A stretch of 64,000 bases of DNA from Anaspis maculata. Lineage: Eukaryota > Arthropoda > Insecta > Coleoptera > Scraptiidae. A model generated the notes under the pieces. The model saw only the letters and a list, made by a program, of their open reading frames with translations. It was not told the DNA's origin and did not search any database. The DNA lies in contig OX421964.1 in assembly GCA_949128115.1 (NCBI GenBank), positions 35,208,177 to 35,272,176 on the forward strand, given 5' to 3'. Both the position numbers and the translations under genes were made by a program. This document shows, piece after piece, positions 5,139 to 37,005 of the stretch (position 1 is the stretch's first letter; every line of letters starts with the position of its first letter).

Positions 5139-5681
5139 ATAAATGCCTGTTGTCCGCCTTTCCAGGCGTAAGTCTCATAAACTATTCATCGAAAAAGTTG
5201 CAAGGCTCTTAACTTCATTCCTGGAAGAGAAGTTTAACTGCAAAACTCCGTAATCAGGCAGCCGCACAGACCAGACACAATTTAGCACTTTCTTCGAAAA
5301 TGCGTCAAAAAGATAGATATTTAGGTAAACATATCAGTAGAATAATACAAAATCTTTCATGCACACACCTTGTTGAGAGAAAGCATCACTTACGGACAAA
5401 AATGTCAACGGACCATCCGTGCAACCGACTGAGTACCTGGGGCCCGTTTCATAAAACTACAAACGACAAATTACAAATATTCAACCTCGGAGACCCATTG
5501 TTGTAACAATGAGTTACCAAGACTACACACTTGTAAATTGTCTGAAATCTGGAAACTAATAGAACTGGTACCATCACTGTCGAAGATCTTCTTTCAAGAA
5601 CCAGACCAGCAAATGTCAAAACAAAAAAAAGACACAGAAGTCACATTGACGCGACACAAATTTTGAAATACTCTTTGCGAA
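5139..5681. promoter_or_regulatory. Upstream region of the Dpy-30-motif gene
   Basis: About 540 bp between the palindrome and the start codon at 5682. I see no clear TATA box. The start codon has a favourable context (G at -3, G at +4). Any promoter and 5' leader should lie here, but no element can be assigned. Confidence 0.3.
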
Positions 5682-6947
5682 ATGGCTGCCGACACTCATA
5701 GCATGGACGACACTCTCCTGAGTGGCAGTGTGATGAGCGCGACTCAACTGGAGCAACAAACCAAGTTCGATGGAACCATCAACGGAGGTTTCGATTTCTT
5801 GACCGACATCGCTCATCAGATGCAAGCCAGGATCGATTTGGTCGAAAGGATCGGTTTGCACTGCACCTGCATCGAATTCAAGACATACGAGGTGACCCAC
5901 GAGTTCGTGCAGCACATCAAGCACCTCCAGGCAAAAAGAGAAGCCTTGCTGAAACACGCGGATCGTGATGATGACGACGAGATAAGCCTTTCAGTCATTC
6001 CACAGTTGAATGCATTCGACAAGGAAATTCAAGTGATGGAATCTCAACACGAAGAAAAACTATTCGCTTTCAAAAAAGACAAACTCGAGCAACAGGAACG
6101 CTTGGAAGACTGCGTGCAGTTGTTGGATCAAGATTTTCTGAGATTGAATACGATTTATCGCAACTTGAAAAAGGAAATCGACGAAGACAAAGCCATTTAT
6201 CCCGACGAATTTACCAGCAAATACAGCCATAGAGTCGAGAAAATTGATACTTTCATAACGAATTTTGGAAAATTGCAATTGACTGGCTGGAAAACTCACA
6301 ACTCCGAAACCAATCTCGCGGAAATCTTGCAAGAGAACGGACTGATGGTCACGAAATCTGGCATGTTGTACACCAGATCTGGCAATCACTTGACTTTCTC
6401 CGAAGCACAGGATAAAGGATATTTGAAGAACCTGGACGTTCCGCTGCAACGAATTTTCGACATCTCTGGCGTGCCCGCGATTAAAAGTGTGCCGAGTCCG
6501 TCCAGCTCAAATTTGAGCATGAGCGTCAGCAAAGGGAGTTCTTCGTGCAGCGGAATGTCTTCCGAGGACGTGAAATATTTGAAAACGGTGGTCGGCAAAC
6601 CGTTGACGCTGGCGCTAGCCGAAATAACGGCGAAACAGCCCAAAGATCCGATCCATTATTTGGGGCATTACTTGTTCAAATACCGCTACAACCAAGAAAT
6701 TGAGCAAGTGCAGAAGGAAGAAGTCGAAGCGCTGGCGCACGAAAGAAAAGTGTTGAGCAAGCAGAGGTGGGACCAGTTTGTTTTGGAGGAAGCCAGGGCT
6801 GCTGTAGTCGACATGGTGCTAAGAGCCGAAATGGAAGCGTATCAAAATGAGTTGAAACGGATCGAGGAAGAAGCAGCCGCTTCAGAAGCCGAAGAAGTTG
6901 AAGAAGATGAACAGTACACGGACGAAGCTAGGGATAAATTTGTTTGA
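5682..6947 (+). CDS. Dpy-30-motif, coiled-coil protein (421 aa)
   Basis: An uninterrupted 421-codon frame starting at a well-placed ATG. Residues 1-60 are low in features. Residues about 75-175 are charged and heptad-like, probably coiled coil. Residues 296-337 form a Dpy-30 motif, recognisable from the YL..V..PL..AL.EI...(K/R)P.DPI.YL..YLFKY pattern. Residues 338-405 are again helical and strongly acidic near the end (EEVEEDEQ). Dpy-30 motifs are two-helix dimerisation modules that dock onto amphipathic helices. They occur in the COMPASS subunit DPY30 and in several axonemal or sperm-tail proteins. At 421 aa with flanking coiled coils this is far longer than DPY30 itself (~100 aa), so an axonemal or testis-type role is more likely, by inference only. 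The gene has no introns, which is unusual here and could mean a retrocopy that kept an open frame. An ATTAAA lies 15 nt after the stop. Confidence 0.8.
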   Translation: MAADTHSMDDTLLSGSVMSATQLEQQTKFDGTINGGFDFLTDIAHQMQARIDLVERIGLHCTCIEFKTYEVTHEFVQHIKHLQAKREALLKHADRDDDDEISLSVIPQLNAFDKEIQVMESQHEEKLFAFKKDKLEQQERLEDCVQLLDQDFLRLNTIYRNLKKEIDEDKAIYPDEFTSKYSHRVEKIDTFITNFGKLQLTGWKTHNSETNLAEILQENGLMVTKSGMLYTRSGNHLTFSEAQDKGYLKNLDVPLQRIFDISGVPAIKSVPSPSSSNLSMSVSKGSSSCSGMSSEDVKYLKTVVGKPLTLALAEITAKQPKDPIHYLGHYLFKYRYNQEIEQVQKEEVEALAHERKVLSKQRWDQFVLEEARAAVVDMVLRAEMEAYQNELKRIEEEAAASEAEEVEEDEQYTDEARDKFV

Positions 6948-23496: not shown

Positions 23497-23500
23497 GTAC
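23497..23500. repeat. Left target-site duplication GTAC
   Basis: Four bases directly before the left LTR, identical to the four directly after the right LTR (37002-37005). Four-base duplications are usual for Ty3/gypsy integrases. The target is itself palindromic. Confidence 0.85.
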
Positions 23501-24478
23501 TGTAAGATCCTGACCGAGAAGAGAATGCACAAGCAATTTTATTAAACGAGCCGTTAGTGTCCGGAAGGCGAAATGTAAAACAGATGATGCCTAGAATCGT
23601 GGGAACGCGGTGGAGGAAACCCAAAAAAGGACCAGACGTTATTTAATCTTCGTGTGCGCGAAAATTTCGGTGAAAGGCTAAGTCAACACGTATTAATTGC
23701 CAATGGAGGTGCCCGGACACATAAACTTCGTTCGACATAAAACCGAAAAATCCAAGCCAAATGGGCGTGTAACAGAATTAGGGTAAATTAGACGACGAAC
23801 CCATCAAAGGACCCCGCTGCGCTGGGACCAGGGCGAGCGACCAACCCCCAATGTATGTGTGAACGTCTGGAGATGACGAAAACAACGGACTTTGCGCGAA
23901 TCTATGTTAATTGAATATTAAAAGTGTTATTCTAGTTCTGTAATTGCCATTACTATGGTGGTTGAATTCGCGTGCACGCACAGGTGAAGAAAACACCAAA
24001 TAACATGTTATTGGGAGCCGGGAAAATTGCAAACGATAAGACCGCGATGTTCGTAAAAATAAATGAATTAAACTAGTGTGTGCATCGGGAAATCAAACCA
24101 CTATAGTAAGGGCATAAGCTTAGGTCAAATTCGTTCAAATTTACTGAGTAAGTAGAAAAGTAGGTAAGTGGCACCAACAGAATGCGACACGGGATGACAT
24201 CTATGGGGTGGTGTGTGAAATCAAAATTGCAGGCCGCGACCAGAGCAGGCTGTGAAGGGAGAGGGGACAATCCGGACAAAGCTACTCAGCGAATCCAAAG
24301 CCGAGGGTGGTTTTTGAAGAGGTCGGTGATTGGTCAATGACTTAAGCCACAAGAGGGGATGGAAAAATCTGAGCTATGGGAAAAGGAGAGCGTAATTCGG
24401 GAGTGACGATTGAGACGTTTTTGCGAACGGTCGAGAAATTAATTTCGTGACGGTTCCGAAATTTGGTCTAAGACTCGC

Positions 24479-24485
24479 TATAAAA
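24479..24485 (+). promoter_or_regulatory. Candidate LTR TATA box
   Basis: TATAAAA in the context cgctataaaaatatatt, about 980 bp into the left LTR. The copy in the right LTR is at 34565-34571. It would place U3 at about 1 kb and leave a long R/U5. Not proven. Confidence 0.4.
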
Positions 24486-26516
24486 ATATATTGTTTGAGT
24501 AAAATCCCGTACACTTGGGGAGATTTAATTTTGTGAATATTTCGAGCTTTGTCTAAAATTCTCTATTGTGAATTTCTGTAAGCAGAATCGAGTCTACTCG
24601 GGAAGGTTTGATTCGCGAAGTCGCGGCTTTGATAATCATTTGCTTTTAGAGTTAAATTGGGGTTTGTGGAAAGTTTGGGTTCTAAATAGTCATCGTAGAA
24701 TTGTTTGTTGGGATTCAAGGTGTGGGAGTTATTTGCTTTGCAGTGTTCACGAGATCTCGATTACTTGTGCACGGGAAACTTAGTGGGGTCTGCGAGTTCA
24801 GTGTTTCTAAGTGCCTGATTGTGAAACATAACAAGGAATAGTTCCTGTCAACGATTGATAGCAGAGAAAGGTTGGAGCCCCTTAATTGTGTGTTAGACTG
24901 TACCTGATTATGTTTTCCGGATAAAATGTTCGACTATGATTTTGTGTCAGAAGGCCTCAACCTCAATGTTTCAGTTTAGAATTACCTGTTGCTGAAAATC
25001 ACAAGTGACGGCTGGTGAATGTGACCGCGGGGTGGGTCTTGTTCTGTTTGTCTGTTGGTTTGTTTGTTTATTTGCTTGTCAGTACTTGACGTGGGAGCAA
25101 GTCCCACCATGTTCAATTAACGGACCGAGTCGCCGTAATAAGGATAAGCGGTGTAGTACCGCTATCACAACCGACCCCTTCGTTAAGATAGGAAGCCATG
25201 GTGCACTTTGAGCCGCGGAATTGAAGCCCTTTTTGTTTGTCAGTTCGGCGAGTGATGACTCCTAGCTCGATGAAAAAAACCTAGTCTGAGTCGCCAATGA
25301 CCGGCGAAAGTTCAAGAGCCACCGATGGGAATACCTATGTATTAAAAAAAGAACGTGAAGGCCTAGTGAACAGCTTCGGCGAACGTGTGGTTTCGAGGGT
25401 TTAGGGATCTTTGCATGTCTCGCATGATAGCGTTTCCGCGAGGGACCGGTGGTCGCGGGGGTCGTATATTCATCTGTAAGTTGTGTCACTTCCGGCCCAG
25501 CGACTGAAGAAAACTGGCCATCGTAAAGAAAAGAATAAGTCCTCCCAAATAACAAGATTAGTAATATAAATTTGGTCCGTTCATTATTTCATGTGTAATT
25601 TGAAATTGATGTAAAAAGTCACAATAGACTGCCGTGCTTCCTTAGGGTAGATAGCAGCTTTTCAGGTGACTCAAGAAGACGTCGGTGCCCAGGCCGAGAA
25701 TATAGGTTAGGCCGACTAAGTAGGTCAGAAACTCCTTTTATGCACCCTGCGGAAAACATTACACCATGCCCGTGTGTGCTATAAAATTCGGGAAGACGAA
25801 GATGCGTTATTGAAGGTACGATTTCCTCATTAATTATAAAAGTCTCTGGGCGAGATGCAGTGGAGCCACCTTGGCACGAAAATAACGTAATGGGGGTGAG
25901 GGTCAGTGAGCTGATCGAAAAGCCCATTTCTACAGGAGAACAATCAAAATTGTCCCGCAAATTAAAGCCTAGACACAGGAATCATAGTTCGAAATACGGA
26001 AATATTTTAGATTGTAATTCGAATATTTATGTACATGTATTGAGATTTGGCGCCTTGAAATATGCTTGTGTAAATCGTTGGAAAAACGAGAGAAGCCGCC
26101 AGCTGCATTGTTAGGTAACCCTTTTAACTAGATTCAGTCAGGGACGTCTCTCAGAGGTTTGATCAGGTTTTCTTTCAGGAACAACATAATCGCCCGCCGT
26201 GACAGGTAGACTAGTTAGCGTTGCTTCATCTCAACGGTGTGGCGGCAGCATCCCTCCTTCCAGTTGACATTGTTCAACTAGGGGGTGCAATGCCTCCCCG
26301 CCGTTCGATTGTAAAATGTAGGGACTTTCAGGTTAGGTAGTTGTCACTGAGAGCTTTCGCATCTAGTGAAACTAAATTAGTCTAATTAATATAAGAGCTT
26401 CTGAGCCCGCTAGAGCGAAGTTAGTCGGCCAGAATCATTATAGTCTGCGAACGAATTTGATCATTAGCCTAAGTACTCGATGTATTGCCAATTGAACAAT
26501 CAATTTCTTATGTACA

Positions 26517-26522
26517 AATAAA
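26517..26522 (+). promoter_or_regulatory. Candidate LTR poly(A) signal
   Basis: AATAAA in tgtacaaataaatctaag, followed within 30 nt by a tgtggtcc / ttgtctgtt GT-rich stretch. The equivalent in the right LTR is 36603-36608, which would end the transcript. Confidence 0.4.
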
Positions 26523-26915
26523 TCTAAGTGTGGTCCAAAGGTTGTCTGTTATCATTTCATTGCAAGGTCTGTGGTTTTAAATCACTAATCATAGAACGAG
26601 AAAGGCGGGGGGGGGAGGGAATGATAGGGAATGGAAGAGAAGTGAAAGGGGCTGTGGAACCTGTAATTAGTGGGCTTAACTCATTTAACAAGCAGTTAAG
26701 GGCTAATTACGTCAGCGGTGATCAGCGACGACGATGGAGGGGCGGGTGAGAAATAGGGGGAAAGGGGTAAGGGACATGACGTAGGAAAGAAAGGATGAGA
26801 TACTCGAGCCCCGGCGAGGGGTACAGGGTAAGACCGAAGGTGTAAGTATCAGACTTAACTATTTATGTTAACCTAGACGGTCCCGAAACTATGGCCAGGG
26901 AAGGGTTATGTTACA

Positions 26916-28112
26916 AAATGGTGCTGCGTGAACCAGGATGATTAGTCGCAAGTATTTAAAAAAACAGACGGTGATGTAAATGATAACAAACAAACAAACA
27001 AACAAACAAAAAATAGCCTTAGGAACGTAGTGAAACCAACATTAAAATCACAAGAGGTAGTAAAGGGGTAGTTGAAAGCGAAAGGGACGACCTATTCAGA
27101 GAGCGGTAACAAAAGAAACCCGGCGCCTTGGTGAGAGTACCGTTGGGTCGGGAATTTGTGGGACGGCCACATGGGTGTGTTGTGATGGCGCTAGACACGT
27201 ACTGTAAACAAGAAACAGGGCCGTAATCAAAATTGTGAAAGGGCCCTTCCTAAATTCAAGGTATTGAGATAGGGGGTGAAGGTGATAGAGGGGAGGGGAT
27301 GGAAGAAGGGGAGTGAGAACAATGCTTAACTAGTAAAGGGGGGTGAGGGGGGGGTGCACTAGATGGGGAGAAAGAAGCCAGCGAGAAATGATTTAGACTT
27401 AGGTACACGTTAATTTCCTAGTTGTTGATTTACTGTTGATGCGATTGTTTATTGGTAAGCATTGAGGAAAAGGATGCGCTTGCAGGCTGGCGCTAAGCGG
27501 GTAGGTCATGCGAAGTGGCGCTTGCGGTGTGTGTCTGTTCCAGGTAGGGACGTGCCCGGTGAATGGCCATGGCCATTGCCAGCGGCCATGCTCCAGGACG
27601 CAGACCAAGTATGAAGTTATGGCGGCTGTGGTGGTGAGAGAATTCTTAGTTTCAACGATGACGTGATGACAAAGCGAGCAGTATCACATGGAGACTAATT
27701 AACACAATTTATCCGCTTGCGTAATTAGTGTAGCCAATATGAGATGTATAGTAGGACTTAGTTAGGATCGTGAGGAGCCGGGATGAGCGACAACTAACTT
27801 AGAAATAATTCTAGTCAAATAACCACTATTATAAGAAACTTGTAGTACTTTCTCTAGCGGAGAGTTCCCGTCAACGTGGATGATGGCAAGAACGCCGCAC
27901 AGGGTGAAGGAGCTACCTTGGCGATGGTTGGCATGCTATTTGAATTTTAGTATGATAGAAGGAACGACCTTGGCCATTGGAAGAGGCTGCGCTCAAGTTA
28001 ATATCAGGAGTAGTGTCTGCGGGAAGTTAGAGATAGTTGGTGAAGTAGGGCCAATGCACAGTTGTAGAAGTAGGGGCGTGCGGAGGCCGAGCATGTCTAA
28101 TGAAGATGTCGG
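26916..28112 (+). other. Leader between LTR and gag
   Basis: 1197 nt including the primer-binding site, an (AAAC)n tract at about 26990-27009 and purine-rich G-runs around 27270-27370. A 78-codon upstream frame (27880-28116) overlaps the first possible gag ATG as ATGA. It has no recognised domain and could reduce or couple gag translation. Packaging signals would be expected here but cannot be pinpointed. Confidence 0.5.
26919..26938 (+). other. Candidate primer-binding site
   Basis: TGGTGCTGCGTGAACCAGGA begins three bases after the left LTR. A start with TGG, complementary to a tRNA CCA end, and this spacing are typical. I could not match it to a specific tRNA from memory, so the primer is unassigned. 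Confidence 0.5.
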
Positions 28113-29570
28113 ATGACGAGTGCTAATATGCGATTATTCTCAAACGATAGGATTACGGTCGTGATGGCAGGACGCAAGAACCCGCGAAAAATCCAGGTGG
28201 CGGAACGTTCCCGGAGCCGCTCGAATTTGAGGAAGGGCGCAAATCGGGAGGTAGCACCTGAGGAGGACCTCATCCCTGCGTGGTTCTTCCGCTACAATGA
28301 AGAGAGTGGGCGACGTCAAGACGAAGCGGAACGCCGTAATGAAGAAAGGGAGAGAAGACAAGCTGAGCGCGAGGCGACGATGATGGCGACGTTCGTGGAG
28401 GCGATGAACTCGCTGAAGGAGGTCGTTCGTCCGCCGACTGCCGCACCGGAAGCACCGGCTGTCCTCGAGGTCGGCGGAGGACCGGAAGAACAACCGCTCG
28501 CTGAGATGAGAAGTGGACTATCCACAGCTACATCCGGCGCGATGGAAATGGACGCACCCAGCCGGAACTTGACGCCAGCTGATCTGGGAAGCCAGCTAAG
28601 AGCGCTGGTAAATCAAGCGGCTCCATTACCTGCAAGGCCGAGCTTCGAAAGTACCGAGGGAGTGGGAAATCCGATGGTGTTTATCGAGAAGATAGAAGAG
28701 TGCGCGAGGAAGGGGAAGATGGACTACGAGCAAACCATCAACCTTGTGATGGAGTGTCTGAAAGGCAAGGCAAAGAGATGGGCGAGTGTCCACCAAGTTG
28801 AGTGGACATCCTACGCAGACTTCCGGGAGGACTTTCTCAACTACTTTTGGTCCGACATCAAACAAAAGTATATCCGGCGTCAGATTGAAGATGGAGAATA
28901 TGACGTGACTCGGAAATACTCACTCGCGGAGCACTTCACTTACCAGGTGGAAAGAGCCAGATTACTCACCTGCCCACCTAGTGAGGAAAGTCTGGTGAAG
29001 ACAATTATGAGGCATTATGACAGCAATATCCAAAGATTTTGGAAAAGAGAGAAGCAGTGCCGCACGATTGTGGCAACGGCAAGATTCTTGGAAGAGATGG
29101 AAGATGATGTCTCGAACGGACACGAGACCACCAGGCGCTCCGGTCGACTCCGAGAGGGTGGCTACCGGGGGGACTACCGGGACCAGCGACCGTACGAACG
29201 AAAGACGAATCACCGTGCACCCAAAGCCATTGAACAGGCACCGGCCATTCCGCAAATTACTTACCCAGCAACGCCACTGCCATCGATGATGTATCCACCA
29301 CCACCGATTGTACCCCCAATTACGTTCCCGATGGCTCAGACCCCTGTGCTTCAGCCCGAAGTGGCACGACGGGACGAGCGAGAACCAGCGAGAGCAGTAG
29401 CAACAGGATCGAGGCCATGGCAACAGCCCAATCGGTACAACTATCGGAATTCGTTCAATGGAAACAATCGTGGGAACGGGAAGGAGTGGCAACGGTGGTC
29501 TAAGACGGGAAATGATGCGAGGAAAAATGGCACGGCTTCGGGAAACGGAGCCCGAGCGGGAAACCATTAG
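28113..29570 (+). CDS. gag: Gag polyprotein
   Basis: 485 codons from the first ATG. The ATG at 28164 (residue 18) has a better context (G at -3 and +4), so the true start may be there, giving 468 aa. Residues 20-45 are basic. Residues 62-105 are highly charged and probably coiled coil. Residues 180-330 resemble a retrotransposon capsid domain (a helix-rich segment with FIEKIEECA, KGKAKRWA and a FREDFLNYFW stretch). Residues 370-415 are proline-rich. Residues 435-485 are rich in Arg, Gly and Asn. There is no CCHC zinc knuckle, which most Gags use to bind RNA, so the basic Gly/Asn/Arg tail probably does this (inference). Gag should form the particle that packages element RNA. The last codons carry two slippery heptamers that lead into pol. 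Confidence 0.9.
   Translation: MTSANMRLFSNDRITVVMAGRKNPRKIQVAERSRSRSNLRKGANREVAPEEDLIPAWFFRYNEESGRRQDEAERRNEERERRQAEREATMMATFVEAMNSLKEVVRPPTAAPEAPAVLEVGGGPEEQPLAEMRSGLSTATSGAMEMDAPSRNLTPADLGSQLRALVNQAAPLPARPSFESTEGVGNPMVFIEKIEECARKGKMDYEQTINLVMECLKGKAKRWASVHQVEWTSYADFREDFLNYFWSDIKQKYIRRQIEDGEYDVTRKYSLAEHFTYQVERARLLTCPPSEESLVKTIMRHYDSNIQRFWKREKQCRTIVATARFLEEMEDDVSNGHETTRRSGRLREGGYRGDYRDQRPYERKTNHRAPKAIEQAPAIPQITYPATPLPSMMYPPPPIVPPITFPMAQTPVLQPEVARRDEREPARAVATGSRPWQQPNRYNYRNSFNGNNRGNGKEWQRWSKTGNDARKNGTASGNGARAGNH
29540..29564 (+). promoter_or_regulatory. Candidate -1 frameshift sites (two GGGAAAC)
   Basis: GGGAAAC occurs at 29540-29546 and again at 29558-29564. Both are in the register X XXY YYZ relative to gag (codons gga aac). 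The second is three nt before the gag stop. The pol frame is -1 to gag and is open from 29516, so a slip at either heptamer fuses Gag to Pol. Downstream, ccgc (29580-29583) can pair with gcgg (29593-29596). This is a weak stem, so a strong stimulatory structure is not obvious. Confidence 0.65.
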
Positions 29571-29617
29571 GCCAATTTTCCGCTCACCTTTCGCGGCCGC
29601 CCAGAAGACCATCTTCA

Positions 29618-32600
29618 ATGACTTACCCAGGGGGGCGAATGCGGGAGGGACCGCCATTCCGTGACGGTATCCAAGTAGCTCCACACATTCAAGTGCTCGA
29701 GGGGGACGTGTTTACGGCACCAAGCGACTTTGCTCTTGTTCACTGCGTGGCTGAGGACTTCGAAATGTCCCGTGGGATTGCAGCCGAAGTCAGGAAGAGA
29801 TTTAAGGGTGAGGCTGAACTGAGGGACCAGAAGAAGAGAGTTGGCCAGGTGGCAAAGCTGGTCTGTGCTGACCGCACGATTCTGTATCTCGTCACCAAGA
29901 AGAGGTCGTATGAGAAACCTACATACGCAGCTCTAAAGGAATGTCTCGAAGTACTAAGAGGAGAGTGTCGGCTCTCGGGACTAAATAAACTGGCGATGCC
30001 AAAGATTGGATGTGGACTTGACCGGTTGAACTGGGGAACGGTCGAAGGGTTAATTAAGAACACCTTTGAGAATACTCCGATCAAGGTGTGGATCTACGAC
30101 AACATACGGATACCAAGACAAGCCACACTTAGTGACTCGTACCTCGCCTACGACGAAGTGTCGACTCCAGAAGGGAAGAGCTTTGGAATACTTTCCCTGC
30201 ACCGAGGTCTGCAGGATGCAGTTGAGGATGCTGATCCCAGACCATATAGGGTTACCCCGGAAATCGTTTGCCAGGTGGAGGGGGTGCCTACCCGTGCACT
30301 TGTAGACACCGGCAGTGAAGTGAGCTGCCTATCAGAGGATATGTGGCAGGCCATTTTGACAACAGGACGACGTCCAGCGACACTGCCAGTAACGGCCATC
30401 CAGCTGAGGGGGGCTATTGGACAGAAAAGCTGCAGAATTGTGGTACAGAGCGACATCAGCCTTCAGATCCGGGGGAAGGTGTGTCAGGTCCCTGCCCTGA
30501 TTGTGCGTAACCTAATTAAACCCTTGATTCTGGGTGCCGACTGGCTCAGTTACACCCAGGCTACGATTGACTTTGAGCAACAGCTGTTGCAACTTCGAGT
30601 TGATGGAGAAGAACTTCAAGTCGAATTTCAAAGGGGTGAACATGTTATTGAGGAGGGGTGTCAAGCAGGGGCCGATCCCGCTGATGCCTGTCACGTAGAA
30701 GTAACCCTTGCTCCTGAGACGTCTAGAACTCCAAAGGGAAGCATCAGACAAGAGCTTCAGAGCAAGGTTGATCAGCTGAGCTGCAGTGCAAGGCAGAAGA
30801 GTGAGCTAATGAGAATTCTCATCAACTCTGAAGACATCTTCAAGAATGAACCTGGAGTTACGCACCTGTATGAGCACCGCATCGAACTCCATGATGACAC
30901 ACCGTTCATTCAGAGGCCGTACCCAGTACCGTTCGCGTTGCGGCCGGCTGTAGAAGAGACGATCACTGAGATGCTGAGACTGGGGGTGATAAGACGAGAA
31001 GCCTCGTCATTCGCGAGCCCAATGACCGTGACAAAAAAGAAAGATGGGACTGTCAGAATTTGTCTGGATGCCAGAGCCATCAATGAAAAGATGGTGGCAG
31101 ACACCGAAACTCCACCGGCACCGGAAGAACTACTGCGGTACTTCCGAGATGTGAGGGTCATGTCCACTATTGACCTGCGGTCGTCATACTGGCAAATCCC
31201 GCTGCACCCTGCCAGCCGCAAGTACACGGCTTTTCTGTACAACGGGCGGTCGTACACATACACGCGGTTGCCGTTCGGATTGAAGACATCGACTGGGAGC
31301 TTCAGCCGAGCCATGGACATTGTGCTTGGTCCGGAGGTACGCGAGTTTGCCGTGAATTATATTGATGACCTGCTGGTGGCCTCGGCTACCTGGGAAGAGC
31401 ACCTTGGGCACCTCGCGAAGGTGTTGGAAAAGCTAAAAGTTGCCCGGATGACGGTGAACTTAGAAAAGTCCTCCTTTCTCCAAACCGAGGTAAAGTTTCT
31501 TGGCCACATCCTGACCACGGAGGGGATCAAGGCTGATCCAGAGAAGGTCATGGCTATCAGGAGGTTTCCCACTCCACAAAAGCACAAGGATGTCCGCGCA
31601 TTCTTAGGATTGTGCAACTACTATAGAAAATTTTCAAAGGACTACAGCGACGCCACGAAACCATTGACCCACCTTTTGCGCAAGGACGTTAAGTGGCAAT
31701 GGGGCCCACAGGAGCAGGTCGTCTTTGACAACGTCAAAAACCTCTTCCTGGAAACGGTACTATTGAAGCACCCCAAAGGGGACCAAACATTCTACGTCCA
31801 GACCGACAGTTCCGGATATGGACTTGGGGCGGAGCTGTATCAGCTGCACGACGAGAACCGGGGAGTGATCGCATTTGCCAGCCGATCTCTCCGTGGTGCA
31901 GAGCTGAATTATACTACGACAGAAAAGGAACTCCTGGGAGTGATTTTCGCCCTCGACAAATTCCGCATGTATATCCAAGGTGCCCGAATTGTTATCCGCA
32001 CCGATCATGCGGCTCTCAAATTTCTTGGACGGTGTCGACTGCTCAACGAACGGCTTACAAGATGGACGCTGTTCTTAAGCCAGTTCAACTACACCATAGA
32101 GCATGTCAAGGGGAAGGAGAATGTAGTTCCCGACATCTTGTCCCGGTTTCCGATGGATGGGAATGGTACGAACGAGTACCCACGTGACCAGCCGATTGTT
32201 GCCCTGTTCGAGGTGGAGGAATCACCTGAAGTCCTTGCAATGCTTGGTGATCTTCAGCAGCGACAGAAAGACGACGAATACCTGAGTCCTATTTGGAAGT
32301 GCAAGCTCTTGCCTGACGAGCCTTGTGCACCATCTGTTCAACGTGTCAGAGATAGATATTGTGTACATGCTAATGTTTTAATTTACAGAGCTGCCCATGA
32401 TACTCAAGCCCGACTCGCCATTCCGGCTAGCTGCGTCAAACAGCTCACGTGGTATCATCACCAGCTCTTGGGTCATTTCGGGGCGACCAAGGTCCACCAG
32501 GCCATGAAGCAGGTGTATCACTGGCCGAATATGTCATGCCGAATCCGGCAGATTATTCGCTCCTGTGACCTCTGCCAGAAAACGAAACATCCCAACCGCA

Positions 32601-33541
32601 CTAGCCAAGGGCCGATGACACCAATAATTGGGAAGGACCTGGGTGACCTGGTCTGTGTCGACTTCTACGGGCCGCTGCCGACTAGTCGGGGAGCCAACTT
32701 CATCTTCGTGGCCGTAGACGCGTTTTCAAAGTTTCTGAAGCTGTACCCGCTGAAGACTGCTACCGCAAAGGCTGCCGTCAATAAGGTGCTCCATGACTAT
32801 GCCAATTACATCCAGCCACGACGTGTACTAAGTGATCATGGAAGTCAGTTCACTTCTAAGAAGTGGCAGGGACCACTGCTGGCAGCCAACATAACACCGA
32901 CACTAGCTTCTATCCGACATCCCAGTTCAAATCCATGCGAGCGAGTCATGCGGGAATTAAGCCGCATTTTCCGTGCGTACTGTCAAGACCAACATGTCAA
33001 GTGGGCGAGCCACCTGCCCCAAATCGAAGAATGTATCAACCAAGTGCCACACGCAAGTACGGGGTACTCGCCTTACCATGTCCTCTATGGTCGAGAGCCT
33101 CCAATGCCGTTGGATGCTCTCACTCACAAACTGCTGCCAACAAGAAAGGTAGAGACCCAAGAGGAGATCCGACGCAACGTGCTGAAGAATCTGCAACATC
33201 AGGCTGAGCTCCGATGCAAACAACAAAGGGGCCTTACTACGAAGTTGCAGATCGGTGATTGGGTGCTGCTGAAGACAAATCCATCCTCAGCGACAGCCAC
33301 AGGGACGTATGCCAAGTTCCTGCCCTTGTACGAGGGACCGTATGTGGTAAAGGCTACGCCACATCCCAACACGTATGCCATTGCAAATGCTGAGACACAA
33401 GCCAGGAGGGGCGTGTACAACATGAGCAATCTGAAACTGTACTACCGACCTGATGACAACCCCTCGGACGCCAATCCCAAAAGTGGCAGCACTAACCGAG
33501 TTCAACCCCAACGGAAGGTTAGCAGAAGGGACGCGAGTTGA
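29618..33541 (+). CDS. pol: Pol polyprotein: macro domain, protease, RT, RNase H, integrase
   Basis: 1307 codons from the first ATG; the frame is open from 29516, so Gag-Pol fusion by frameshift is likely and the ATG may not be used. Domains by residue: TARG1/OARD1-like macro domain about 24-161; aspartic protease with VDTG at 229-232; reverse transcriptase about 430-620 with IDLRSSYWQI (518), LPFGL (551) and catalytic YIDD (581-584); RNase H about 724-845 with D730, E771 and D796; integrase with an HHCC zinc finger (H948, H953, C983, C986), catalytic D1015, D1073, E1108 (34 residues between the last two) and a GPY module at 1240. All key residues are present and no stop interrupts the frame. 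It ends 45 nt before the right LTR. Length is normal for gypsy Pol plus one extra N-terminal domain. Confidence 0.95.
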   Translation: MTYPGGRMREGPPFRDGIQVAPHIQVLEGDVFTAPSDFALVHCVAEDFEMSRGIAAEVRKRFKGEAELRDQKKRVGQVAKLVCADRTILYLVTKKRSYEKPTYAALKECLEVLRGECRLSGLNKLAMPKIGCGLDRLNWGTVEGLIKNTFENTPIKVWIYDNIRIPRQATLSDSYLAYDEVSTPEGKSFGILSLHRGLQDAVEDADPRPYRVTPEIVCQVEGVPTRALVDTGSEVSCLSEDMWQAILTTGRRPATLPVTAIQLRGAIGQKSCRIVVQSDISLQIRGKVCQVPALIVRNLIKPLILGADWLSYTQATIDFEQQLLQLRVDGEELQVEFQRGEHVIEEGCQAGADPADACHVEVTLAPETSRTPKGSIRQELQSKVDQLSCSARQKSELMRILINSEDIFKNEPGVTHLYEHRIELHDDTPFIQRPYPVPFALRPAVEETITEMLRLGVIRREASSFASPMTVTKKKDGTVRICLDARAINEKMVADTETPPAPEELLRYFRDVRVMSTIDLRSSYWQIPLHPASRKYTAFLYNGRSYTYTRLPFGLKTSTGSFSRAMDIVLGPEVREFAVNYIDDLLVASATWEEHLGHLAKVLEKLKVARMTVNLEKSSFLQTEVKFLGHILTTEGIKADPEKVMAIRRFPTPQKHKDVRAFLGLCNYYRKFSKDYSDATKPLTHLLRKDVKWQWGPQEQVVFDNVKNLFLETVLLKHPKGDQTFYVQTDSSGYGLGAELYQLHDENRGVIAFASRSLRGAELNYTTTEKELLGVIFALDKFRMYIQGARIVIRTDHAALKFLGRCRLLNERLTRWTLFLSQFNYTIEHVKGKENVVPDILSRFPMDGNGTNEYPRDQPIVALFEVEESPEVLAMLGDLQQRQKDDEYLSPIWKCKLLPDEPCAPSVQRVRDRYCVHANVLIYRAAHDTQARLAIPASCVKQLTWYHHQLLGHFGATKVHQAMKQVYHWPNMSCRIRQIIRSCDLCQKTKHPNRTSQGPMTPIIGKDLGDLVCVDFYGPLPTSRGANFIFVAVDAFSKFLKLYPLKTATAKAAVNKVLHDYANYIQPRRVLSDHGSQFTSKKWQGPLLAANITPTLASIRHPSSNPCERVMRELSRIFRAYCQDQHVKWASHLPQIEECINQVPHASTGYSPYHVLYGREPPMPLDALTHKLLPTRKVETQEEIRRNVLKNLQHQAELRCKQQRGLTTKLQIGDWVLLKTNPSSATATGTYAKFLPLYEGPYVVKATPHPNTYAIANAETQARRGVYNMSNLKLYYRPDDNPSDANPKSGSTNRVQPQRKVSRRDAS
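29687..30100 (+). other. TARG1/OARD1-type macro domain within Pol
   Basis: Pol residues 24-161. Seen in the translation: an EGDVF start, HCVAEDFEMSRGIA (42-55), LVTKKRSYEKPTY (91-103) and MPKIGCGLDRLNW (127-139). These are the signature blocks of the ALC1-like macro domain of TARG1, which removes ADP-ribose from glutamate and aspartate. The two residues known to be needed in human TARG1, Lys84 and Asp125, correspond to K94 and D135 here with the same 41-residue spacing. The fold should therefore bind ADP-ribose and may be an active hydrolase (inference). It probably derives from a captured host gene. Its purpose in the element is unknown; countering host ADP-ribosylation, as viral macro domains do, is one idea. 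Confidence 0.88.
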
Positions 33542-33570
33542 GTTTCCTGTGCCCATGCTGAGCAGCCGAA

Positions 33571-33586
33571 AACTCAAGGGGGTGAC
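33571..33586 (+). other. Candidate polypurine tract
   Basis: aactcaagggggtgac directly precedes the right LTR. The purine run is short (aaggggg), so this is a weak but correctly placed plus-strand priming site. Confidence 0.45.
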
Positions 33587-36500
33587 TGTAAGATCCTGAC
33601 CGAGAAGAGAATGCACAAGCAATTTTATTAAACGAGCCGTTAGTGTCCGGAAGGCGAAATGTAAAACAGATGATGCCTAGAATCGTGGGAACGCGGTGGA
33701 GGAAACCCAAAAAAGGACCAGACGTTATTTAATCTTCGTGTGCGCGAAAATTTCGGTGAAAGGCTAAGTCAACACGTATTAATTGCCAATGGAGGTGCCC
33801 GGACACATGAACTTCGTTCGACATAAAACCGAAAAATCCAAGCCAAATGGGCGTGTAACAGAATTAGGGTAAATTAGACGACGAACCCATCAAAGGACCC
33901 CGCTGCGCTGGGACCAGGGCGAGCGACCAACCCCCAATGTATGTGTGAACGTCTGGAGATGACGAAAACAACGGACTTTGCGCGAATCTATGTTAATTGA
34001 ATATTAAAAGTGTTATTCTAGTTCTGTAATTGCCATTACTATGGTGGTTGAATTCGCGTGCACGCACAGGTGAAGAAAACACCAAATAACATGTTATTGG
34101 GAGCCGGGAAAATTGCAAACGATAAGACCGCGATGTTCGTAAAAATAAATGAATTAAACTAGTGTGTGCATCGGGAAATCAAACCACTATAGTAAGGGCA
34201 TAAGCTTAGGTCAAATTCGTTCAAATTTACTGAGTAAGTAGAAAAGTAGGTAAGTGGCACCAACAGAATGCGACACGGGATGACATCTATGGGGTGGTGT
34301 GTGAAATCAAAATTGCAGGCCGCGACCAGAGCAGGCTGTGAAGGGAGAGGGGACAATCCGGACAAAGCTACTCAGCGAATCCAAAGCCGAGGGTGGTTTT
34401 TGAAGAGGTCGGTGATTGGTCAATGACTTAAGCCACAAGAGGGGATGGAAAAATCTGAGCTATGGGAAAAGGAGAGCGTAATTCGGGAGTGACGATTGAG
34501 ACGTTTTTGCGAACGGTCGAGAAATTAATTTCGTGACGGTTCCGAAATTTGGTCTAAGACTCGCTATAAAAATATATTGTTTGAGTAAAATCCCGTACAC
34601 TTGGGGAGATTTAATTTTGTGAATATTTCGAGCTTTGTCTAAAATTCTCTATTGTGAATTTCTGTAAGCAGAATCGAGTCTACTCGGGAAGGTTTGATTC
34701 GCGAAGTCGCGGCTTTGATAATCATTTGCTTTTAGAGTTAAATTGGGGTTTGTGGAAAGTTTGGGTTCTAAATAGTCATCGTAGAATTGTTTGTTGGGAT
34801 TCAAGGTGTGGGAGTTATTTGCTTTGCAGTGTTCACGAGATCTCGATTACTTGTGCACGGGAAACTTAGTGGGGTCTGCGAGTTCAGTGTTTCTAAGTGC
34901 CTGATTGTGAAACATAACAAGGAATAGTTCCTGTCAACGATTGATAGCAGAGAAAGGTTGGAGCCCCTTAATTGTGTGTTAGACTGTACCTGATTATGTT
35001 TTCCGGATAAAATGTTCGACTATGATTTTGTGTCAGAAGGCCTCAACCTCAATGTTTCAGTTTAGAATTACCTGTTGCTGAAAATCACAAGTGACGGCTG
35101 GTGAATGTGACCGCGGGGTGGGTCTTGTTCTGTTTGTCTGTTGGTTTGTTTGTTTATTTGCTTGTCAGTACTTGACGTGGGAGCAAGTCCCACCATGTTC
35201 AATTAACGGACCGAGTCGCCGTAATAAGGATAAGCGGTGTAGTACCGCTATCACAACCGACCCCTTCGTTAAGATAGGAAGCCATGGTGCACTTTGAGCC
35301 GCGGAATTGAAGCCCTTTTTGTTTGTCAGTTCGGCGAGTGATGACTCCTAGCTCGATGAAAAAAACCTAGTCTGAGTCGCCAATGACCGGCGAAAGTTCA
35401 AGAGCCACCGATGGGAATACCTATGTATTAAAAAAAGAACGTGAAGGCCTAGTGAACAGCTTCGGCGAACGTGTGGTTTCGAGGGTTTAGGGATCTTTGC
35501 ATGTCTCGCATGATAGCGTTTCCGCGAGGGACCGGTGGTCGCGGGGGTCGTATATTCATCTGTAAGTTGTGTCACTTCCGGCCCAGCGACTGAAGAAAAC
35601 TGGCCATCGTAAAGAAAAGAATAAGTCCTCCCAAATAACAAGATTAGTAATATAAATTTGGTCCGTTCATTATTTCATGTGTAATTTGAAATTGATGTAA
35701 AAAGTCACAATAGACTGCCGTGCTTCCTTAGGGTAGATAGCAGCTTTTCAGGTGACTCAAGAAGACGTCGGTGCCCAGGCCGAGAATATAGGTTAGGCCG
35801 ACTAAGTAGGTCAGAAACTCCTTTTATGCACCCTGCGGAAAACATTACACCATGCCCGTGTGTGCTATAAAATTCGGGAAGACGAAGATGCGTTATTGAA
35901 GGTACGATTTCCTCATTAATTATAAAAGTCTCTGGGCGAGATGCAGTGGAGCCACCTTGGCACGAAAATAACGTAATGGGGGTGAGGGTCAGTGAGCTGA
36001 TCGAAAAGCCCATTTCTACAGGAGAACAATCAAAATTGTCCCGCAAATTAAAGCCTAGACACAGGAATCATAGTTCGAAATACGGAAATATTTTAGATTG
36101 TAATTCGAATATTTATGTACATGTATTGAGATTTGGCGCCTTGAAATATGCTTGTGTAAATCGTTGGAAAAACGAGAGAAGCCGCCAGCTGCATTGTTAG
36201 GTAACCCTTTTAACTAGATTCAGTCAGGGACGTCTCTCAGAGGTTTGATCAGGTTTTCTTTCAGGAACAACATAATCGCCCGCCGTGACAGGTAGACTAG
36301 TTAGCGTTGCTTCATCTCAACGGTGTGGCGGCAGCATCCCTCCTTCCAGTTGACATTGTTCAACTAGGGGGTGCAATGCCTCCCCGCCGTTCGATTGTAA
36401 AATGTAGGGACTTTCAGGTTAGGTAGTTGTCACTGAGAGCTTTCGCATCTAGTGAAACTAAATTAGTCTAATTAATATAAGAGCTTCTGAGCCCGCTAGA

Positions 36501-37001
36501 GCGAAGTTAGTCGGCCAGAATCATTATAGTCTGCGAACGAATTTGATCATTAGCCTAAGTACTCGATGTATTGCCAATTGAACAATCAATTTCTTATGTA
36601 CAAATAAATCTAAGTGTGGTCCAAAGGTTGTCTGTTATCATTTCATTGCAAGGTCTGTGGTTTTAAATCACTAATCATAGAACGAGAAAGGCGGGGGGGG
36701 GAGGGAATGATAGGGAATGGAAGAGAAGTGAAAGGGGCTGTGGAACCTGTAATTAGTGGGCTTAACTCATTTAACAAGCAGTTAAGGGCTAATTACGTCA
36801 GCGGTGATCAGCGACGACGATGGAGGGGCGGGTGAGAAATAGGGGGAAAGGGGTAAGGGACATGACGTAGGAAAGAAAGGATGAGATACTCGAGCCCCGG
36901 CGAGGGGTACAGGGTAAGACCGAAGGTGTAAGTATCAGACTTAACTATTTATGTTAACCTAGACGGTCCCGAAACTATGGCCAGGGAAGGGTTATGTTAC
37001 A
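33587..37001 (+). repeat. Right LTR (3415 bp)
   Basis: Same length as the left LTR, with all short frames identical at offset 10,086. The one difference I found is G at 33809 against A at 23723. Near-identity of two 3.4-kb LTRs means that very little time has passed since insertion, or that gene conversion has occurred. Confidence 0.95.
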
Positions 37002-37005
37002 GTAC
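37002..37005. repeat. Right target-site duplication GTAC
   Basis: Matches 23497-23500. Confidence 0.85.

What the first reader, a model, noticed from the sequence alone, without database searches (positions are those of the whole stretch)
29687..30100. TARG1/OARD1-like macro domain fused to the start of a Ty3/gypsy Pol
The sequence shows a complete macro domain between the gag/pol frameshift and the protease, with the signature blocks of the cellular ADP-ribosyl-glutamate hydrolase and both catalytic residues (K94, D135) at the right spacing. The element is young and its frames are open, so the domain is likely under selection. Macro domains are known from positive-strand RNA viruses, where they reverse host ADP-ribosylation. 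I do not know of a described gypsy lineage with one here. It could protect Gag or cDNA from host PARPs, or remove ADP-ribose formed during integration; both ideas are inference.
Basis: partly seen in the sequence, partly recalled or inferred. Interest (0 to 1): 0.92.

Follow-up and report, generated by a model that had tools for sequence, protein, structure and literature searches.

The report
ADP-ribose eraser inside gypsy retrotransposons
A young animal retrotransposon carries, at the front of its polymerase protein, a copy of a cellular enzyme that strips ADP-ribose tags, and several other retrotransposon families in the same genome carry a related copy at other positions, which suggests that tagging by host enzymes is something these elements must undo.

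Summary
Confirmed and enlarged. The window holds a 13,501-bp Ty3/gypsy element (3,415-bp LTRs, 1 mismatch, TSD GTAC). Its Pol, in -1 frame to Gag, begins with a complete TARG1/OARD1-type macro domain: human TARG1 E 1.5e-36, predicted fold 1.0-1.2 A from TARG1 crystals, catalytic Lys and Asp present. It is neither a one-off nor an assembly error: the same genome has 16 matches of this family's domain (10 in intact 1,341-aa frames) and 9 of a sister family with it in the same place. At least four more families there, and 7 gypsy-type Pols in public data, carry TARG1 domains before PR, between PR and RT, between RNase H and IN, or after IN; retroviral dUTPases are recorded before PR, within Pol and after IN. 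Trees reject one capture; codon tests reject neutrality. The host has an array of PARP catalytic-domain genes, one shown to be PARP12-like. Most likely the domain travels with Gag-Pol and reverses host mono-ADP-ribosylation of element proteins or nucleic acids; that function is inferred. Nine open-access paper searches listed no report of it.

The parts
23497..23500 (.). target-site duplication GTAC, left
23501..26915 (+). 5' LTR, TGTAAG...GTTACA, 3415 bp
28113..29570 (+). Gag frame from its first Met (stop-to-stop 28104-29570); no Pfam match at E 1
29540..29546 (+). in-phase slippery heptamer G GGA AAC, first
29554..29585 (+). predicted hairpin 7 nt after the first heptamer (it contains the second heptamer)
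29558..29564 (+). in-phase slippery heptamer G GGA AAC, second, just before the gag stop
29516..33541 (+). Pol open frame, -1 relative to Gag, 1341 aa stop to stop
29684..30103 (+). TARG1/OARD1-type macro domain
29897..29899 (+). Lys equivalent to human TARG1 K84 (nucleophile)
   Evidence: role from PMC6397177 passage
30020..30022 (+). Asp equivalent to human TARG1 D125
   Evidence: role from PMC6397177 passage
30287..30550 (+). aspartic protease (DTG)
31034..31501 (+). reverse transcriptase (match cut by the end of the piece searched)
31781..32086 (+). RNase H
32420..32590 (+). integrase H2C2 zinc-binding domain
32648..32923 (+). integrase core (rve)
33587..37001 (+). 3' LTR, 3415 bp, 1 mismatch to the 5' LTR
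37002..37005 (.). target-site duplication GTAC, right

Best explanation
The element encodes its own TARG1-class ADP-ribosylhydrolase as an accessory Pol domain. Shown by sequence: the domain, its catalytic pair, its place right after the -1 frameshift and before the protease, its presence in many copies and in a sister family, and its recurrence in other gypsy families. Inferred: the Gag-Pol fusion takes it into the particle, the protease may free it, and there it removes mono-ADP-ribose that host PARPs (this host has an array of PARP genes, one shown to be PARP12-like) put on Gag, Pol or the element's nucleic acid, so that particle assembly, reverse transcription or integration can go on. It is a counter-defence or repair enzyme kept by selection.
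For: TARG1 identity. K84 and D125 kept in 16 of 16 retroelement TARG1 domains compared: 6 families of this genome, 8 domains of 7 public Pols, 2 fragments. Purifying selection in the macro domain: omega=1 rejected, 2dlnL 82.1 (W against C), 79.6 (A against B), 61.7 (A against D), 77.4 (B against D); 3 nonsynonymous and 8 synonymous segregating sites in 16 copies. In A-D and B-D the macro domain (50, 51% identity) is at least as conserved as RT (46, 44%) and more than IN (29, 30%). Recurrence: one clade of the 13 TARG1-bearing Pols rejected on the RT tree (AU p 1.9e-84), and one clade of 15 retro domains on the macro tree (p 0.0004). 7 of the host's 16 PARP matches lie within 0.3 Mb; the one compared with PDB is closest to human PARP12 (E 1.3e-26). 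TARG1 removes mono-ADP-ribose from acidic residues and from 5'/3' phosphates of DNA and RNA (PMC8053099, passages).
Against: No activity, expression, packaging or substrate was tested. dS is saturated between families, so omega has no reliable value. The macro domain is less conserved than RT in W-C (56 against 92%; PR 59%) and in A-B (55 against 69%). The loop before the catalytic Asp varies: 5 of 16 retro domains fail the published TARG1 pattern there. The nearest relative P0129 (RT 83%) and the Tribolium gypsies (RT 78%) do without the domain. The PARP array is only circumstantial, and one gene of it was typed. Drosophila data link PARP-1 to gypsy transcript levels, not to ADP-ribosylated Gag or cDNA (PMC7712786, passages).
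Confidence: 0.6

Rival explanations
1. Housekeeping of nucleic-acid ends: the domain mainly removes ADP-ribose from 5' or 3' phosphates of the RNA template or cDNA, so that reverse transcription or integration is not blocked, as dUTPase keeps uracil out of retroviral cDNA.
For: TARG1 cleaves ADP-ribose from terminal phosphates of dsDNA and ssRNA (PMC8053099, passages). TARG1 domains sit before PR, within Pol and after IN, the three places where retroviral dUTPases were acquired (PMC1224870, passages).
Against: No evidence of ADP-ribosylated retroelement cDNA or RNA was seen. A shared site may only mean that these are the tolerated insertion points in Pol; family E uses a further one.
Confidence: 0.25
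2. Reader, not eraser: the domain binds poly- or mono-ADP-ribose and tethers Gag-Pol or integrase to PARP-rich chromatin or RNA granules.
For: TARG1 goes to DNA damage sites depending on PAR (PMC8053099, passages). The domain lies next to IN in several families.
Against: A pure reader would not need the catalytic Lys and Asp, yet both are kept in 16 of 16 domains. Position varies from before PR to after IN.
Confidence: 0.1
3. It acts on free O-acetyl-ADP-ribose made by sirtuins and so shifts NAD metabolism or heterochromatin silencing.
For: TARG1 was first shown to hydrolyse O-acetyl-ADP-ribose (PMC8053099, passages). SIRT6 mono-ADP-ribosylates KAP1 to silence L1 (review PMC4695847, passages).
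Against: Fusion to Pol favours a local target in the particle, not a diffusible metabolite (inference).
Confidence: 0.04
4. Passenger, one-off fusion or chimeric assembly.
For: The closest relatives found outside this genome lack the domain.
Against: 16 family matches at distinct places, a sister family with it, and other families; TSD and near-identical LTRs around it; purifying selection.
Confidence: 0.01

Closest known systems
TARG1 / OARD1 / C6orf130 (human, PDB 4j5q, 4j5r, 4j5s)
   Same: Fold, K84 and D125, published active-site pattern
   Different: Here a domain of a retrotransposon Pol behind a frameshift, not a stand-alone cellular enzyme; 44-45% identity
Ty3/gypsy elements of Tribolium castaneum (P0130, P0131) and the unnamed P0129
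   Same: Same RT lineage (RT 78-83%), same PR-RT-RH-IN order
   Different: No macro domain in them; P0129 has an unrelated 160-aa stretch before PR, P0130 and P0131 run from Gag to PR without one
Retroviral dUTPases (betaretroviral N-terminal of Pro; non-primate lentiviral within Pol; MuERV-L C-terminal of IN; PMC1224870, passages)
   Same: Small accessory enzyme captured repeatedly at corresponding Pol positions
   Different: Other fold and chemistry; retroviruses, not gypsy
Macro domains of positive-strand RNA viruses (alphavirus nsP3 and kin)
   Same: Macro fold (lower Foldseek ranks) and de-ADP-ribosylation as the likely use
   Different: Another macro class, 15-18% identity, other kind of virus
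Kadipiro virus VP8 and other virus proteins with a TARG1-like fold
   Same: Best viral fold matches; 22-42% identity in the first 11 rows
   Different: Kadipiro virus and the named insect-associated RNA viruses in that list are not reverse-transcribing elements; several rows have no name
Other accessory domains in LTR retrotransposons: chromodomain, viral helicase, m6A demethylase in orchid gypsy (listing), DNA methyltransferase (listing)
   Same: Captured enzyme or reader domain in a retrotransposon polyprotein
   Different: None of these is an ADP-ribosylhydrolase

Membership tests
TARG1/OARD1 macrodomain | macro fold closest to TARG1 | tested here: met
   top 8 PDB hits all human TARG1; E 1.5e-36
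TARG1/OARD1 macrodomain | catalytic Lys84 and Asp125 | tested here: met
   present in the window and in 16 of 16 retro domains
TARG1/OARD1 macrodomain | published pattern TKx(30,35)Px[IL]GxGxD (PMC6397177) | tested here: met
   window yes; 11 of 16 retro domains yes; families A, C, D, E and P0194 fail at the loop
TARG1/OARD1 macrodomain | Pfam Macro above gathering cut-off | tested here: not met
   17.1 bits against 22 (sister family C passes with 24.6)
TARG1/OARD1 macrodomain | hydrolysis of ADP-ribosyl-Glu/Asp | not testable with these tools
   needs protein
Ty3/gypsy (Metaviridae) | LTRs and target-site duplication | tested here: met
Ty3/gypsy (Metaviridae) | PR-RT-RH-IN order | tested here: met
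Ty3/gypsy (Metaviridae) | RT lineage within gypsy Pols | tested here: met
   with P0129 and family C (100/100) next to Tribolium Pols
Errantivirus / insect endogenous retrovirus | env gene between pol and 3' LTR | tested here: not met
   45 bp between the Pol stop (33541) and the 3' LTR (33587); families A and B of the same genome do have a Baculo_F-type env frame
-1 ribosomal frameshift signal | in-phase X XXY YYZ, spacer, downstream structure | tested here: met
   z -2.1, 10 of 200 shuffles fold as well; two or more heptamers in 1.5% of shuffles, one or more in 12.6%; not shown to work

The most novel reading that the evidence does not exclude
TARG1 ADP-ribosylhydrolase domains are a recurrent, selected weapon of animal Ty3/gypsy elements and env-bearing insect endogenous retroviruses, captured several times and placed at Pol sites that correspond to those of retroviral dUTPases. 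Their spread, in a host with an array of PARP genes, points to ADP-ribosylation as an unrecognised layer of defence against retroelements in arthropods.
Probability: 0.45. Interest if true: 0.95.

Novelty: new variant of a known kind. Interest (0 to 1): 0.88.

Why it matters
No reverse-transcribing element with an ADP-ribosylhydrolase turned up in nine open-access full-text searches. Eight of them use macro-domain, TARG1, ADP-ribose or hydrolase terms (one search is on dUTPase), but only (2 papers; 11 papers) demand such a term together with a retroelement term; in the others only the top of a longer list was seen. Repeated capture and upkeep of such an enzyme suggests that ADP-ribosylation acts on retroelements often enough to select for its removal. 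That makes the question whether PARPs restrict retrotransposons testable: which PARP, which substrate, which step. Pfam's generic model misses the window's domain, so more cases are likely in existing genomes.

Tried and rejected
Rejected: chance or generic match; chimeric assembly or one-off; a single capture for the retro TARG1 domains. Doubtful: recent capture of the window's domain from this host's TARG1-like gene, which has an intron inside the domain, is 39% identical and stands, weakly supported, with P0128 and Anthonomus (AU p 0.06 for the host gene plus the six own families, so not excluded). A bacterial source is not favoured for the window's domain: unnamed rows taken as non-animal (only P0016 is named as bacterial) fall outside the animal/retro group in 19 of 22, 6 of 7 and 3 of 3 cases; P0030 pairs with P0194, so that one stays open.

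Led nowhere: the viral-contig scan gave one distant locus (L001); no tRNA in the window, so the primer-binding site is unassigned. Not answered: whether W or C elements WITHOUT the macro domain exist in this genome (protease query, 14 calls, all 'busy'). The host species was not identified; arthropod is inferred from the nearest named relatives (Tribolium, Anthonomus, Pyrocoelia).

Limits and rows dropped: RT trees used 69 of 119 rows and 42 of 124; 'no macro' is a label from database proteins, some of which start shortly before PR (such as P0132), so an upstream domain cannot be excluded for them. P0194 was left out of the macro tree as a long branch, and was not in the one beyond its row there; it is, where one clade is also rejected (p 0.007). 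The tool lists only 120 of 349 and 120 of 376 protein hits. In the genome only 150 of 474 macro candidates were scored, so counts are lower bounds; of the 124 places at 39-46% identity I read about thirty.

Full report
1. The thing. The window contains a complete LTR element at 23501-37001: two LTRs of 3,415 bp with one mismatch, TG...CA ends, and the 4-bp duplication GTAC on both sides. Gag (28104-29570) and Pol (29516-33541) overlap; Pol is in the -1 frame. Two canonical in-phase heptamers G GGA AAC lie at 29540 and 29558. A predicted hairpin starts 7 nt after the first and contains the second (z -2.1, 10 of 200 shuffles fold as well). Two or more such heptamers arise in 1.5% of codon shuffles of Gag's end, one or more in 12.6%. 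Pol holds PR, RT, RNase H and IN in gypsy order. Only 45 bp separate the Pol stop from the 3' LTR, so there is no env.

2. The domain. Right after the frameshift and before PR is a macro domain (29684-30103). Against all PDB sequences it hits human TARG1 at E 1.5e-36, with a gap to the next class. The AlphaFold2 model from 56 sequences (pLDDT 88.8) superposes on TARG1 crystal structures at 1.0-1.2 A, TM-score 0.85-0.96. K84 and D125 have their counterparts, whose roles are given in PMC6397177 (passages), and that paper's TARG1 pattern matches. Against this, Pfam Macro scores 17.1 bits, under its cut-off.

3. Copies. In the window's own genome (757.8 Mb, 50 contigs) 150 of 474 candidates were scored with the macro domain as query; 150 matches are listed, all at E 6.2e-28 or better. 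Sixteen are this family (W; 98.6-100% identity), the window's own copy included; 10 of the 16 have the 1,341-aa open frame. Nine more (57-58%) are a sister family C with the domain in the same place before PR and an RT 91-92% identical; a tenth match (L055, 58%) is decayed and shows no PR or RT in the stretch held. The remaining 124 (39-46%) belong, as far as read, to other families: A (1,482-aa frame) and B (1,437 aa) with the domain between RNase H and IN, D (1,627 aa) likewise, and E (1,340 aa), where PR has a frame of its own and the domain lies between it and RT. In all 26 places read both RNase H and the macro domain are found. In-phase heptamers lie in the gag/pol overlap of C, A, B and D, but none in E, whose shift is of the other kind. 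The copies of families A and B read for it have a Baculo_F-type env frame (L066, L067).

4. Elsewhere. Among the 125 proteins listed by the two Pol searches a TARG1 profile finds 12: 7 have RT (P0121 with two domains, P0125, P0126, P0127, P0128, P0189, P0194) and 5 are insect proteins in which no RT was found (P0122, P0123, P0124, P0191, P0192). The domain is N-terminal in P0128 and, truncated, in P0194; between RNase H and IN in P0125 and P0127; after IN in P0121, P0126 and P0189. P0220 has a macro domain of another class (best PDB hits MacroD-type) between RNase H and IN. Two fragments, P0021 and P0028 (Pyrocoelia), look like pieces of such Pols from their flanks (inference). The nearest relatives of the window element outside the genome lack the domain: P0129 (RT 83%) and the Tribolium elements P0130 and P0131 (RT 78%), whose sequence before PR is long enough to show it.

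5. History. On the RT-RNase H tree (42 of 124 rows) the five RNase H-IN cases (D, P0127, P0125, A, B) form one clade (99/97) and the three C-terminal cases another (100/99); W and C sit together (93/60, not firm) beside macro-less P0129 (100/100). Holding the 13 TARG1-bearing Pols as one clade is rejected (p 1.9e-84), also without W and C (p 0.007), and also for the five with the domain before RT (p 0.003). The least number of changes is 4 without P0220; it cannot separate gains from losses. On the macro tree W and C are sisters (100/99) and one clade of 15 retro domains is rejected (p 0.0004). So: more than one capture, then vertical upkeep. The six families of this genome group weakly (80/64). 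The host's own TARG1-like gene (exons in L070, intron inside the domain) is 39% identical to W; it stands weakly with P0128 and Anthonomus and is not shown to be the source.

6. Selection. Pairwise codon models reject omega=1 in the macro domain between W and C (2dlnL 82.1), A and B (79.6), A and D (61.7), B and D (77.4). dS is saturated, so values of omega mean little. If domains were captured separately from a conserved host gene, part of the signal would be the host's; W-C and A-B are sisters on both trees, which argues against that for them. Within W, 16 copies show 3 nonsynonymous and 8 synonymous segregating sites in the domain (pN/pS 0.11; linker and PR 0.09; the next stretch to RT 0.34); in the domain nearly all differences come from six related copies (L039-L044). 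Macro against RT identity: W-C 56 and 92%, A-B 55 and 69%, A-D 50 and 46%, B-D 51 and 44%. So the domain changes faster than RT between close families, which fits a host interface or weaker constraint, and holds as well as RT between distant ones.

7. Mechanism. Shown: an intact, conserved TARG1-class domain encoded as part of Gag-Pol. Known of TARG1 (PMC8053099, passages): it removes mono-ADP-ribose from acidic residues, hydrolyses O-acetyl-ADP-ribose, and frees ADP-ribose from terminal phosphates of DNA and RNA. Host side: 16 PARP catalytic-domain matches in this genome (20 of 20 candidates scored), 7 of them within C4:72,198,149-72,498,837. One, L079, is closest to human PARP12 and its YVIHY aligns with PARP12's YVIQY, a mono-ADP-ribosyltransferase type (the H-Y-I reading is recalled); three of the array were also matched to Pfam PARP alone. 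In Drosophila mobile elements, gypsy-type ones among them, are mainly upregulated without PARP-1 (PMC7712786, passages). I infer that the domain reverses host mono-ADP-ribosylation of element proteins or nucleic acid in or near the particle. Which substrate is open.

8. Comparison. Retroviral dUTPases were acquired three times, N-terminal of Pro, within Pol, and C-terminal of IN (PMC1224870, passages). TARG1 domains in gypsy Pols occupy corresponding sites (before PR, RNase H-IN, after IN) plus PR-RT in family E. That the lentiviral dUTPase lies between RNase H and IN is recalled. Nine searches of 5.39 million open-access papers listed no paper on a macro domain in LTR retrotransposons; only listings were seen, plus the first part of PMC6338049 (part 1 of 4) and passages of PMC8053099, PMC7712786, PMC12440569, PMC1224870, PMC6397177 and PMC4695847. 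Repbase, GyDB and subscription journals were not searched.

9. After the filing check I corrected the count of sister-family copies, the search description, the statement on bacterial rows and the host-gene placement, and added the A-B comparison; none changes the odds.

Noticed in passing
G000 C4:72,198,149-72,498,837 (L075-L077, L079, L080): Array of at least 7 PARP catalytic-domain matches, one (L079) shown closest to human PARP12; pairs of further PARP matches on C7 and C1.
   Followed up: partly
L067:272-1930 (-), L066:672-1832 (-): Copies of families A and B carry a Baculo_F-type env frame after Pol, so TARG1 domains also occur in env-bearing insect endogenous retroviruses.
   Followed up: partly
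P0220, residues 836-943: A gypsy Pol with a macro domain closest to MacroD-type chains, not TARG1, between RNase H and IN.
   Followed up: partly
P0122, P0123, P0124, P0191, P0192: Insect proteins with one or two TARG1 domains; P0123 has a second, degenerate macro-like stretch (E 1.7e-8, others weaker); P0124 has a PAM2 motif.
   Followed up: partly
Kadipiro virus VP8 and Frankliniella/thrips-associated RNA viruses: Several of the best named viral fold matches of the domain are in insect-associated viruses of different kinds.
   Followed up: no
G000 C4:93,220,497 and C4:93,230,557 (L045, L036): Two W matches 10,060 bp apart, near the 10,086-bp LTR spacing: probably tandem copies sharing an LTR.
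   Followed up: no
P0126: A gypsy Pol filed under Klebsiella pneumoniae; its macro domain pairs with a firefly fragment (100/97), so the record is likely contamination.
   Followed up: no
window 5667-6947 (+): 426-aa open frame with a Dpy-30 motif (E 1.3e-10), probably a host gene or retrocopy.
   Followed up: no
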